This document shows, in pieces, positions 15,724-36,352 of a DNA stretch of 64,000 bases (position 1 is the stretch's first letter; each line of letters begins with the position of its first letter). Origin of the DNA: Nostoc sp. NMS7. Its GTDB lineage: Bacteria > Cyanobacteriota > Cyanobacteriia > Cyanobacteriales > Nostocaceae. The notes beneath the pieces are model-generated. The model saw only the letters and a list, made by a program, of their open reading frames with translations, was not told the DNA's origin and did not search any database. The position numbers and the translations under genes are program-made. The stretch spans positions 1 to 64,000 of the forward strand of contig NZ_JABXKJ010000107.1 in NCBI RefSeq assembly GCF_017115085.1, in the 5' to 3' direction.

Positions 15724-18216
15724 TCAAGTGCTTTTTAGAGGACTCCTTTGTTTTGACTGTGGTGGGAGCAAAAGCCGGTAAGCGAGCAGTTTCACGCGGT
15801 CATTCACGACGAACCACGCCAGCGCATAGCCCCAAACGAACAGTGCCCAACCCCAGCCGAGAGGCGTCATAAATAGCCCATATACCGCGATTAACGTCGC
15901 CACGACTTGTGTACCAAGTACGGCTATCCATAAAATCCGCGCGGGACGAATAGACCAGAACGGGCCGCGTGTGCGGGTGAGGAAGATCGTCAGATGTCCA
16001 GCCACGGAGAGCTTCAAATACATCAGTGTCTGGATGTGTGCGCGATCGAGATGAAAGACGCGCTCACCAAGATAAAACAGTCCGAACGCGGAGACAACCC
16101 CGATCACGCCTAACACCGTGGAGATCCCCAGCACAAGGCGCATATCCCATGCCTCGGGCTTATCTCGGTAATGAACATTGTCATAGGCGATGGACAGGAT
16201 GGCACCGTCGTTGAGCAACGCCAGCATCACAATCATCACCGCCGTCACCGGGTAAAAGTTAAAGAACAGGATCGACAAGGTCATGAACAACAGCACACGC
16301 AACGTCTCGGCGATACGGTAGATCGCGTAGCTGTTCATCCGTTGGAAAATGCGGCGGCTTTCCTTAATCGCGTCAATAATCACCGACAGTCCGGGCGTTG
16401 TCAGCACAATGGAAGCCGCCGCCCGCGCTGCGTCTGTTGCGCCTGAAACGGCGATGCCGCAGTCGGCTTTCTTCAGCGCGGGGGCATCATTCACCCCGTC
16501 ACCCGTCATACCGACAATATGTCCGTGTTTTTGCAGGACATCTACAATGTGGAACTTGTGTTCGGGGAATACCTGGGCAAAACCGTCGGCATTCTCAATG
16601 GAATCGGACACTTCTGATGTCTCTTGCTTTTCCGAGTCGCCCAAGCTACCAGCATCGAGGATATTTGCGCCCATGTCCAACTTTTTGGCGGTTTCCTGAG
16701 CGATCGCTAATGCATCGCCCGTCAGCATCTTGATGTTTACGCCCATCTTTGCTGCGCTTGCAATGGTTGCCTTGGCATCTTCCCGTGGCGGATCGAACAG
16801 CGGCAATACACCAAGAAACTGCCATTTTCCATCGCCCTCAGCCCGCGCCACGCCCAACGAACGAAAGCCACGGGTTGCAAATTCGTTGACCGCTTTCTCG
16901 ACAGCCGACTTCACCTGCCCAGCATTGGTGGATAATGCTAGAATCACTTGGGGCGCACCCTTGGTCACTTTGAAAGTTTTTCCGTCTTTGGCTTTAACGC
17001 TGGCTTCGGTGCGTTTATGCACCGGGTCGAATGGCGTAAAGTGAACCACCTCGTAAGCCTTTAACGAATCCTTGTCTTTCAGTCCGTCCAAAACGGCTAG
17101 ATCAATGGTGTCGTTGTTTTCCGCGCGCGACGCCAGCGCCCCATTGAGGATGATTTCATCAGCCGGAATATTATTCACACTGAAGGGATCACCCAGCGTC
17201 AGCTTGTTCTGGGTCAAGGTGCCGGTCTTGTCCGCACATAACACATCCACACCAGCCAGTTCCTCAATAGCGACCAATCGGCTGACAATCGCTTTTTTCT
17301 TGGAGAGCAGGCGTGCGCCAACCGCCATCGTTACCGACAGCACTGTTGGCATCGCCACGGGAATCGCAGCTACGGTCAACACCAGAGCGAACTGCAACGT
17401 AGTGAGGATCGGGTCGCCACGGGAGATGGCGACGGTAATAATCAACGTCACCAGAGCCAGGGCGAGGAGGATCAGGTAGTTGCCGATCTTTAAAACCGCC
17501 TTTTGAAAATGGCTGACAGTTTGCGCCTTCTGCACCAGTTGCGCCGTCTTGCCGAAGTAGGTGTTCGCACCCGTGGCATAGACCAGTGCGCTGCTCTCAC
17601 CGCGACGAACGATCGAGCCGGAAAACACCGCGTCGCCAGGGTTACACTTGGCAGGCAGGGATTCGCCCGTCAGCGCGGACTGATCCACCGACATGGGATC
17701 GCCGTCCAATAAGCGGGCATCTGCTGGCACTATATCGCCAAGCCGCAGTTGGATGACATCGCCGGGCACCAACTCACGCGCTGGCGGGGTAATCCACTTC
17801 CCATCTCGTTTCACCTGGGTCTTGGTCGCGAGCTTCGCCTTCAGAGCAGTAATGGCGTTGCCCGCAGCACTTTCTTCCCAGAATGCCACCACAGCGTTGG
17901 TAACTAGCAGCAACAGGATGATGAAGAAATCCGGCCAGTGCCGCACCACGCCCGAAAGAATCACCGCCGCCTCGATCATCCACGGGATCGGTCCCCAGAA
18001 ATAAGTGAGGAATTTCAGGAATGGATTCGTCTTCTTTTCCTCGATCTCGTTAGGACCATATTCAGTCAGGCGCTTCTTCGCCTGTGCTTGGCTGAGTCCG
18101 TCTGGCGACGACTCCAGTTTTTTTTCCACCTCCGGCAGTGGCAGGGTTTTCAGATCGTCTTTCGCATCGGGCTTCGATTTGGTAGCTTTGGTCTGATCGG
18201 CAACGGGTTTGATCAT
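15724..18216 (-). CDS. P-type plasma-membrane H+-ATPase (P3A type)
   Basis: 830-aa proton pump of the fungal/plant plasma-membrane class. The N-terminal cation-ATPase domain contains GLSQAQAKKRLTEYGPNEI. The actuator loop has DQSALTGESLPA, the phosphorylation site is CADKTGTLTQN, the nucleotide-binding domain has KGAPQVI, and the hinge is MLTGDALAIAQ followed by GMTGDGVNDAPALKKADCG. About ten membrane helices are seen. It exports protons at the cost of ATP. It follows acetate kinase by 31 bp on the same strand, with AAAGGAA before the ATG, and ends the metabolic operon. Exporting acid protons made during acetate production is a reasonable role here. Confidence 0.92.
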   Translation of the reverse strand: MIKPVADQTKATKSKPDAKDDLKTLPLPEVEKKLESSPDGLSQAQAKKRLTEYGPNEIEEKKTNPFLKFLTYFWGPIPWMIEAAVILSGVVRHWPDFFIILLLLVTNAVVAFWEESAAGNAITALKAKLATKTQVKRDGKWITPPARELVPGDVIQLRLGDIVPADARLLDGDPMSVDQSALTGESLPAKCNPGDAVFSGSIVRRGESSALVYATGANTYFGKTAQLVQKAQTVSHFQKAVLKIGNYLILLALALVTLIITVAISRGDPILTTLQFALVLTVAAIPVAMPTVLSVTMAVGARLLSKKKAIVSRLVAIEELAGVDVLCADKTGTLTQNKLTLGDPFSVNNIPADEIILNGALASRAENNDTIDLAVLDGLKDKDSLKAYEVVHFTPFDPVHKRTEASVKAKDGKTFKVTKGAPQVILALSTNAGQVKSAVEKAVNEFATRGFRSLGVARAEGDGKWQFLGVLPLFDPPREDAKATIASAAKMGVNIKMLTGDALAIAQETAKKLDMGANILDAGSLGDSEKQETSEVSDSIENADGFAQVFPEHKFHIVDVLQKHGHIVGMTGDGVNDAPALKKADCGIAVSGATDAARAAASIVLTTPGLSVIIDAIKESRRIFQRMNSYAIYRIAETLRVLLFMTLSILFFNFYPVTAVMIVMLALLNDGAILSIAYDNVHYRDKPEAWDMRLVLGISTVLGVIGVVSAFGLFYLGERVFHLDRAHIQTLMYLKLSVAGHLTIFLTRTRGPFWSIRPARILWIAVLGTQVVATLIAVYGLFMTPLGWGWALFVWGYALAWFVVNDRVKLLAYRLLLPPQSKQRSPLKST

Positions 18217-18247
18217 GGGTATTCCTTTGGTTTATTTTTTCCTTTTT

Positions 18248-35838: not shown

Positions 35839-35851
35839 GCTTCTTCCCTCT

Positions 35852-36352
35852 TTATTTATCTTTATCAGGATTTGTATCTTTTATGACTAAAACAGAACAA
35901 TTCGCATGGTCAACGACATGATTGCTGACACTACCTACGAAAAATTCTGCGATCGCTGAGTGGTCATGCCGACCTAGTACGATCAGATCAGCATTCCACT
36001 CTTGAGCAACACTGGAAATCGTTGCCCCTGGCTCACCAAAATGGTGTTGATATTCAGCAGGAATATTTCGGGCAGTTGCCTGATCACAGTATTCTTGTAA
36101 CCAAACTTTTGCCTGCTCAATCTCTAGCTGAAGTGTTTCCTCGCGAAATGATTGAGAAAGCCCAGTGTTGATCGGATAGAGTCCAAAGGTCCCACCTGAC
36201 TCAAATCCTGGATCGATCGCAGTAAAGTCTACGAGGCAATGAAGGATCATCAATTTAGCTTGCTCTTGCTGCGCTAAATTGAGTGCCCGATCAAACACAA
36301 TGGATGTTAAAGGAGAATGATTAATGGCAACCAGAATGCGTTTAAAGTTCAT
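35852..36352 (-). CDS. Universal stress protein (UspA family)
   Basis: 166-aa USP domain protein starting MNFKRILVAINHSP and ending VDHANCSVLVIKDTN. The nucleotide-loop region reads LIVLGRHDHSAIAEFFVGSVSN. The second glycine of the usual GxxGxxxxxxxxxGS motif is aspartate here, so ATP binding may be weakened, but the terminal GS is kept. It directly precedes phosphoketolase (13 bp), so it is probably the first gene of the fermentative operon or the last of the stress genes upstream. Several USP proteins respond to energy or oxygen limitation, which suits this position. Confidence 0.9.
   Translation of the reverse strand: MNFKRILVAINHSPLTSIVFDRALNLAQQEQAKLMILHCLVDFTAIDPGFESGGTFGLYPINTGLSQSFREETLQLEIEQAKVWLQEYCDQATARNIPAEYQHHFGEPGATISSVAQEWNADLIVLGRHDHSAIAEFFVGSVSNHVVDHANCSVLVIKDTNPDKDK

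What the first reader, a model, noticed from the sequence alone, without database searches (positions are those of the whole stretch)
15724..36352. Operon-like island encoding a redox-neutral glycogen-to-acetate pathway built on phosphoketolase and a sedoheptulose-bisphosphate branch
Seen: one strand carries USP, phosphoketolase, 58-aa protein, RpiB, rpe remnant, class I aldolase, SHB17-like phosphatase, TPI, PGI, PPK2, PGM, glycogen phosphorylase, slipin, GlgX, acetate kinase and H+-ATPase, with repeated ATGA overlaps. Known: these enzymes, plus transketolase and epimerase from the Calvin cycle, can be summed. F6P gives E4P + acetyl-P; E4P + DHAP gives SBP, then S7P; S7P + GAP gives two pentose-P; these give two GAP + two acetyl-P; TPI returns DHAP. 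Net: F6P gives three acetyl-P with full carbon recovery. Glucose to three acetate is exactly redox balanced, so no NAD(P)H is made or needed. Starting by phosphorolysis, three ATP per glucosyl unit result with no ATP invested. No PFK, GAPDH, PGK, zwf or gnd gene is present. Inference: a natural, gene-clustered version of non-oxidative glycolysis for dark anoxic survival.
Basis: partly seen in the sequence, partly recalled or inferred. Interest (0 to 1): 0.93.

Follow-up and report, generated by a model that had tools for sequence, protein, structure and literature searches.

The report
Natural carbon-saving glycogen-to-acetate gene island
A 20-kb block of cyanobacterial genes, likely acquired by horizontal transfer, carries nearly every enzyme of a sugar-splitting cycle that is predicted to turn stored glycogen into acetate and ATP without losing carbon as CO2, a design that we otherwise met only as laboratory-built pathways.

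Summary
In detail: window 15724-36352 (extended here to 37575) encodes, on one strand, phosphoketolase, RpiB, a truncated rpe, class I aldolase, a GPM2/SHB17-type phosphatase, TPI, PGI, PPK2, PGM, glycogen phosphorylase, GlgX, acetate kinase and an H+-ATPase. The block is GC-rich (0.523 against 0.399), and ten genes tested show dN/dS 0.03-0.30.

Aldolase lies within 50 nt of the phosphatase in 17 of 23 close-relative loci, across four phyla; phosphoketolase is in 17 of 23. Related clusters sit on plasmids; a Methylophaga one adds transketolase.

Stoichiometry gives 3 acetate and 3 ATP per glucosyl with no redox step. New here: if the phosphoketolase also takes sedoheptulose-7-phosphate, the gene set with intact rpe closes without transketolase, like the synthetic SCTPK cycle.

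Flux, phosphatase substrate, co-transcription and anoxic use are untested. Against it: this copy has lost most of rpe (intact copies lie elsewhere in the genome), a Polymorphobacter cluster includes zwf and gnd, the genome has zwf, and no oxygen-response box recurs. Probably a mobile natural relative of non-oxidative glycolysis: a new variant of a known kind.

The parts
33421..35838 (-). phosphoketolase (xfp), likely entry enzyme of the cycle; loop of the published ATP-sensing motif is one residue short
   Evidence: (three XFP Pfam domains)
33186..33362 (-). 58-aa ORF, no family match
   Evidence: 0 families
32647..33093 (-). ribose-5-phosphate isomerase RpiB
32432..32548 (-). rpe remnant: first 31 Rpe codons, then out; about 640 bp missing compared with the intact copy in contig C267
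31407..32435 (-). class I fructose-bisphosphate aldolase
30784..31410 (-). histidine-family phosphatase of GPM2/SHB17 type, predicted sugar bisphosphatase
29975..30763 (-). triosephosphate isomerase
28347..29978 (-). glucose-6-phosphate isomerase
27380..28312 (-). polyphosphate kinase 2
25533..27227 (-). phosphoglucomutase
22993..25536 (-). alpha-glucan phosphorylase
21803..22810 (-). slipin/band-7 protein
19438..21645 (-). glycogen debranching enzyme GlgX
18248..19441 (-). acetate kinase (one of two in the genome)
15724..18216 (-). plasma-membrane-type H+ P-ATPase
   Evidence: TIGR01647, 1064.7 bits
35852..36352 (-). universal stress protein
36488..37575 (-). DUF1269 and DUF3611 genes at the 5' edge of the block

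Best explanation
The island carries the genes of a glycogen-to-acetate pathway that is predicted to run as a closed phosphoketolase cycle, a natural counterpart of synthetic non-oxidative glycolysis, and it was likely acquired by horizontal transfer. Inferred working: phosphorylase, GlgX, PGM and PGI would turn glycogen into fructose-6-phosphate without spending ATP; phosphoketolase would split it into acetyl-phosphate and erythrose-4-phosphate; class I aldolase would join the latter to DHAP; the phosphatase would pull the bisphosphate forward irreversibly; sedoheptulose-7-phosphate would be split either by the phosphoketolase itself or by the genome's transketolase; RpiB and Rpe would return pentose-phosphate to xylulose-5-phosphate; TPI would recycle the triose; acetate kinase would make 3 ATP per glucosyl; and the H+-ATPase could spend ATP on the proton gradient while respiration and light are off. 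Shown here: gene content, order, overlaps, conservation, purifying selection, foreign base composition, and the stoichiometry of the reaction set. Inferred: substrates, direction, co-transcription, dark-anoxic use. This copy depends on an Rpe encoded elsewhere.
For: Gene calls and four ATGA overlaps. Linear programming: 3 acetate, 3 ATP, no redox carrier per glucosyl; with bifunctional XFP, removing fba, all phosphatase activity, tkt, rpe, rpiB, tpi or xfp makes it infeasible; with trifunctional XFP the set with rpe closes with no tkt or tal, every step carrying flux 1. fba within 50 nt of the phosphatase in 17 of 23 loci with phosphatase identity of at least 55%; xfp on the same strand in 17 of 23; below 55%: fba 0 of 21, xfp 5 of 21. 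Control: class I aldolases at 69% identity or less lie within 1.5 kb of xfp or phosphatase in 0 of 25 cyanobacterial loci, against 3 of 5 at about 80% or more (30 of the 55 genomes with a hit were given as loci). Methylophaga plasmid run fba-isoamylase-pgm-pgi-tkt-glgP-ack-xfp-phosphatase. Intact rpe beside rpiB or fba in L022, L023, L024 and the second copy L076. dN/dS 0.033-0.300 in 20 comparisons of ten genes. GC 0.523 against 0.399. Island XFPs form a clade (20 rows, 100/96) that leaves out the genome's own chromosomal XFP. No PFK in the genome; tkt, tal, rpe and GlpX bisphosphatase are present.
Against: No flux, enzyme or expression data. rpe is broken in this copy and phosphatase is missing in the second copy. 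Polymorphobacter's cluster includes zwf and gnd, so at least one relative looks oxidative; this genome has zwf. The Desulfocapsa locus has PFOR and ldhA pieces nearby. Methylophaga has a broken GAPDH-like gene after the phosphatase and lacks rpe, rpiB and tpi in the cluster. The closest characterised phosphatase is an FBPase (PMC4535450). PFK absence is shared by 18 of 60 family genomes, so it is not tied to the island. No FNR-type box recurs; promoter and terminator counts are at chance. PMC10365998 (passages) argues that the ordinary cyanobacterial XPK mainly brakes the Calvin cycle and that its deletion left ATP unchanged. The fba tree is poorly resolved (2 of 17 inner branches starred), and many loci are MAGs.
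Confidence: 0.5

Rival explanations
1. Open phosphoketolase shunt: XFP plus acetate kinase make ATP from sugar phosphates, while the triose leaves through lower glycolysis or feeds the Calvin cycle; aldolase and phosphatase serve ordinary sugar-phosphate return.
For: The XPK-ACK route for survival in dark anaerobic and osmotic stress is reported for Synechococcus elongatus (sentence in PMC10365998, citing Chuang and Liao 2021, which was not read). S. meliloti pSymA has adhP-xfp-phosphatase with no fba beside it. xfp stands with phosphatase but no fba in L045-L049.
Against: Needs no dedicated aldolase-phosphatase pair, yet fba lies within 50 nt of the phosphatase in 17 of 23 loci. At E<=1e-4, E. 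coli pgk and pykA yardsticks found nothing in the 55 loci tested, and gapA only broken pieces in one (the yardsticks are of limited sensitivity).
Confidence: 0.25
2. Oxidative pentose-phosphate plus phosphoketolase route: glucose-6-phosphate is oxidised by zwf and gnd and the pentose is split by XFP, giving NADPH and CO2.
For: Polymorphobacter plasmid: tkt-zwf-rpe-ack-gnd-tal-pgi-rpiA-xfp-fba-phosphatase. A gnd-like gene lies near a distant phosphatase in L052. zwf is in this genome.
Against: Among the 55 loci tested, E. coli zwf matched 1 and gnd matched 2. No such gene is in the window island.
Confidence: 0.1
3. A loosely assembled stress island whose metabolic genes are spare copies with no closed pathway of their own.
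For: Gene sets vary between loci, and stress-type genes sit around them. rpe is broken here and phosphatase is missing in the second copy. No operon signal beyond overlaps.
Against: The xfp-fba-phosphatase association spans four phyla, and ten genes are under purifying selection.
Confidence: 0.15

Closest known systems
SCTPK cycle (synthetic, E. coli; PMC10468489, abstract, outline and passages seen)
   Same: Phosphoketolase on F6P, X5P and S7P with aldolase, sedoheptulose-bisphosphatase, Rpi, Rpe and Tpi; no transketolase needed; 3 acetyl-phosphate per glucose, no net reducing power.
   Different: Synthetic; it spends 1 ATP on glucose, whereas phosphorolysis of glycogen would not. S7P activity of the island XFP and SBPase activity of the island phosphatase are untested; rpe is broken in this copy.
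Synthetic non-oxidative glycolysis (Bogorad et al. 2013; seen only as a citation in PMC10468489)
   Same: Phosphoketolase, carbon rearrangement and bisphosphatase; full carbon recovery.
   Different: Natural, gene-clustered, with glycogen-degrading genes, acetate kinase and an H+ pump; transketolase is in some relatives' clusters (L084, L085, L030) but not in this one.
Cyanobacterial XPK-ACK survival pathway and ATP-sensitive XPK (PMC10365998, passages seen)
   Same: Phosphoketolase plus acetate kinase in a cyanobacterium, linked there to dark anaerobic survival.
   Different: Here XFP is clustered with dedicated aldolase and phosphatase, and the x7 spacing of the ATP motif is x6.
Mtb GPM2/Rv3214 FBPase (PMC4535450, passages) and yeast SHB17 (PDB YKR043C entries)
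   Same: Sequence and fold: 2a6p E 1.5e-37 and TM 0.85; YKR043C E 5e-25 and TM up to 0.81.
   Different: Substrate of the island enzyme unknown; alpha-ribazole phosphatases also match (TM about 0.80).
Bifid shunt (recalled, no call)
   Same: Phosphoketolase and acetate kinase.
   Different: As recalled it is open-ended, with triose going to lactate; here triose would be recycled.

Membership tests
Phosphoketolase (XFP) | XFP_N, XFP and XFP_C domains in one full-length protein | tested here: met
   599, 292 and 320 bits
ATP-inhibited cyanobacterial-type XPK | Motif PWx2Hx3YRx7HxRx31R with exact spacing (from PMC10365998) | tested here: not met
   loop is x6 in the window XFP and in 10 of 30 other XFPs aligned; the chromosomal XFP (L078) keeps the motif. 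Whether ATP still inhibits is untested.
Class I FBP aldolase | Full-length class I family match | tested here: met
   (519 bits against a cut-off of 250)
SHB17/GPM2-type sugar bisphosphatase | Histidine-phosphatase fold with RHG and closest kin GPM2/SHB17 | tested here: met
SHB17/GPM2-type sugar bisphosphatase | Bisphosphatase activity on SBP or FBP | not testable with these tools
   no enzyme assay
Non-oxidative glycolysis (NOG) | Reaction set closes to 3 acetyl-P per F6P without redox steps | tested here: met
   for island plus rpe plus tkt (bifunctional XFP); tkt and rpe are in the genome
Non-oxidative glycolysis (NOG) | Demonstrated flux and carbon yield | not testable with these tools
   no flux data
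SCTPK (transketolase-free) | Complete gene set in the cluster, including rpe | tested here: not met
   rpe truncated in the window; present intact in L022, L024 and L076, of which L076 lacks the phosphatase
SCTPK (transketolase-free) | Phosphoketolase acts on S7P | not testable with these tools
   substrate range stated for cyanobacterial XPK in PMC10365998; not assayed for this enzyme

The most novel reading that the evidence does not exclude
The module is a mobile, naturally evolved, transketolase-free non-oxidative glycolysis: a trifunctional phosphoketolase, class I aldolase, SHB17-like sedoheptulose-bisphosphatase, RpiB, Rpe and TPI turn glycogen into three acetates and three ATP with full carbon recovery, and spread between phyla on plasmids as a survival kit for dark or dried cells, with a phosphoketolase released from ATP braking.
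Probability: 0.3. Interest if true: 0.88.

Novelty: new variant of a known kind. Interest (0 to 1): 0.7.

Why it matters
Full-carbon glycolysis to acetyl-phosphate is known to us as an engineered design. A gene-clustered natural form would show that evolution reached it, would give tested-by-selection enzymes for metabolic engineering, and would offer a defined bioenergetic answer (3 ATP per glucosyl, no electron acceptor) to how photosynthetic and surface-dwelling bacteria stay alive in the dark without oxygen. The xfp-fba-phosphatase triad gives a simple genomic signature to search for.

Tried and rejected
FNR-type boxes (TTGATN4ATCAA, pattern recalled): full matches only in L086 (two) and L089 (one) among 55 sources, none at the xfp-phosphatase genes; the window island has none even at 9 of 10. 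Promoter/terminator scan: at shuffle level. First ORF clustering picked wrong-strand ORFs in GC-rich loci and was replaced by tblastn with window and E. coli yardsticks. Island PFK absence as evidence: weakened, since 18 of 60 family genomes lack PF00365. Transketolase in the L046/L048/L049/L081 clusters: only a divergent transketolase-like protein (L049: 52 bits), so not counted as tkt. An oxygen-regulon link for S. meliloti xfp was sought in papers (listing only) and not found. Papers: the natural-cluster question rests on listings in an open-licence library only; three papers were opened (passages: PMC10365998, PMC10468489, PMC4535450).
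Full report
WHAT IS THERE. Window 15724-37575 is a minus-strand block. Pfam and NCBIfam identify DUF3611, DUF1269, USP, phosphoketolase, RpiB, class I aldolase, a histidine-family phosphatase, TPI, PGI, PPK2, PGM, alpha-glucan phosphorylase, slipin, GlgX, acetate kinase and an H+ P-ATPase; a 58-aa ORF has no match. 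Four gene pairs overlap as ATGA. GC is 0.523 in the block and 0.399 in the rest of the window, with edges near 15.8 and 36-37 kb. dN/dS in 20 comparisons covering ten genes is 0.033-0.300; glgX, ack, the H+-ATPase and usp were not measured.

THE RPE REMNANT. Between rpiB and fba the first 31 codons of a ribulose-phosphate epimerase remain. A second copy of part of the block lies in contig C267 of the same genome (L076: DUF3611-usp-xfp-rpiB-rpe-fba, xfp 98% identical) with an intact 262-aa rpe (231 bits), but without the phosphatase. About 640 bp are missing from the window copy. The genome also has another rpe in C232. Intact rpe stands in the same place in L022 and L024, and in L023, which lacks fba.

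RELATIVES. The phosphatase is rare in cyanobacteria: 15 of 292 genomes at E<=1e-20, of which only this genome and one other are above 80% identity. A scan of named genomes gave 44 loci. Of 23 with at least 55% phosphatase identity, 17 have fba within 50 nt on the same strand and 17 have xfp on the same strand (16 have both); of 21 below 55%, none has fba and 5 have xfp. The 17 come from Cyanobacteriota, Pseudomonadota, Verrucomicrobiota and Thermodesulfobacteriota. Caveats: several are MAGs; L026/L027 and L042/L043 are near-identical pairs; fba is partial or split in L026, L027, L029 and L031, and xfp in L029 is a fragment. Control: of 30 aldolase loci taken from 55 cyanobacterial genomes with a hit (of 386 searched), 3 of 5 island-type and 0 of 25 ordinary ones have xfp or phosphatase within 1.5 kb.

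PLASMIDS. No plasmid record holds most of the block (0 of 33 matching records cover 80%). fba matches 23 plasmid records and the phosphatase 293, of which 54 cover at least 80% of it. I opened seven records in eight calls. Lichenicola: tpi-glucokinase-xfp-fba-phosphatase. Methylophaga: fba-isoamylase-pgm-pgi-tkt-glgP-ack-xfp-phosphatase, then broken GAPDH-like pieces. Polymorphobacter: tkt-zwf-rpe-ack-gnd-tal-pgi-rpiA-xfp-fba-phosphatase, then glucoamylase, pgm and tpi. S. meliloti pSymA: adhP-xfp-phosphatase. Rhodococcus: slipin, xfp-fba-H+-ATPase, GH65, with a phosphatase further off. Methylotuvimicrobium: xfp-fba, phosphatase across the record start. Nostoc C052: xfp-fba-glgP. Several sources are lichens or polar soil.

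TREES. Phosphatases of the islands form one clade of 26 rows (100/99) that mixes four phyla and plasmids. Island XFPs form a clade of 20 rows (100/96) that leaves out this genome's own chromosomal XFP. The fba tree is poorly resolved. With the GC step this points to horizontal transfer.

STOICHIOMETRY. With bifunctional XFP, island plus rpe plus transketolase gives exactly 3 acetate and 3 ATP per glucosyl; removing fba, the phosphatase, tkt, rpe, rpiB, tpi or xfp leaves no steady state. If XFP also splits S7P, island plus rpe closes with neither transketolase nor transaldolase, each step carrying flux 1; SBP synthesis and SBPase are then essential and FBPase is not. If the phosphatase is only an FBPase, the cycle closes with tkt and tal. 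The window genes alone, without rpe, do not close. The genome supplies tkt, tal, rpe and a GlpX bisphosphatase.

ENZYME CLUES. The phosphatase is closest to GPM2 (2a6p, E 1.5e-37, TM 0.85), then by sequence to YKR043C/SHB17 (5e-25), whose entries include SBP and FBP complexes; by fold, alpha-ribazole phosphatases rank between them (model pLDDT 89.5). GPM2 is an FBPase and SHB17 has FBPase and SBPase activity according to PMC4535450 (passages). PMC10365998 (passages) gives the cyanobacterial XPK substrates as F6P, Xu5P and S7P and an ATP-sensing motif. The chromosomal XFP here has the exact motif; the window XFP and 10 of 30 other XFPs have one residue fewer between its YR and HxR, and these 11 are exactly the 11-row clade of the tree. 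Loss of ATP inhibition is a prediction only.

OTHER ROUTES IN THE GENOME. PF00365 PFK: 0 matches in this genome, 42 of 60 family genomes have it. zwf: 1. Acetate kinase: 2. Over 55 relative loci, E. coli yardsticks found no pfkA, pgk, pykA, edd, eda, adhE, pta, fbp or glpX at E<=1e-4, gapA pieces in 1, zwf in 1, gnd in 2, PFOR and ldhA in 1. The yardsticks miss things: L086 has an annotated phosphate acetyltransferase.

JUDGEMENT. That the genes act as a closed, redox-neutral cycle is the reading that best accounts for the paired aldolase and phosphatase beside xfp, but the Polymorphobacter cluster shows that oxidative genes can join it, and nothing here measures flux, regulation or transcription. 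In the literature searches (open-licence papers, listings) no title or abstract start pointed to a natural gene-clustered form; synthetic forms are described (PMC10468489, passages).

Noticed in passing
L076 (contig C267) 12234-18226: Second partial copy of the module in the same genome, with intact rpe but no phosphatase; its other end holds short ORFs resembling parts of an additional F-type ATPase (label recalled).
   Followed up: partly
window 33421-35838; L078: The island XFP has a one-residue-shorter loop in the ATP-sensing motif while the chromosomal XFP keeps it; the short loop marks an 11-row clade across cyanobacteria, Rhodococcus, Lichenicola, Polymorphobacter and a Rhodospirillales MAG.
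   Followed up: yes
L029, L031, L033 downstream of the phosphatase: An extra ATP synthase-like operon follows the phosphatase (beta subunit confirmed by Pfam in L033 only; order resembles Na+-type N-ATPase, recalled).
   Followed up: partly
window 14989-15429: PPK2 fragment (C-terminal half of the domain) just outside the island.
   Followed up: no
window 37600-39500: Broken membrane-protein gene (HdeD-like, label recalled) that has an intact-looking relative at L076 6980-7534, and a 7TMR-HDED fragment at 39479-39853.
   Followed up: partly
whole genome G000: No PF00365 phosphofructokinase, although both same-genus genomes in the sample have it.
   Followed up: partly
L024 13219-16203; L021; L025; L087: A GH65 phosphorylase (fused to a beta-PGM-like HAD domain in L024; separate genes in L087) often sits near the module, suggesting disaccharide phosphorolysis as another feed.
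   Followed up: no
L084 22197-22835: Broken GAPDH-like gene after the Methylophaga phosphatase.
   Followed up: partly
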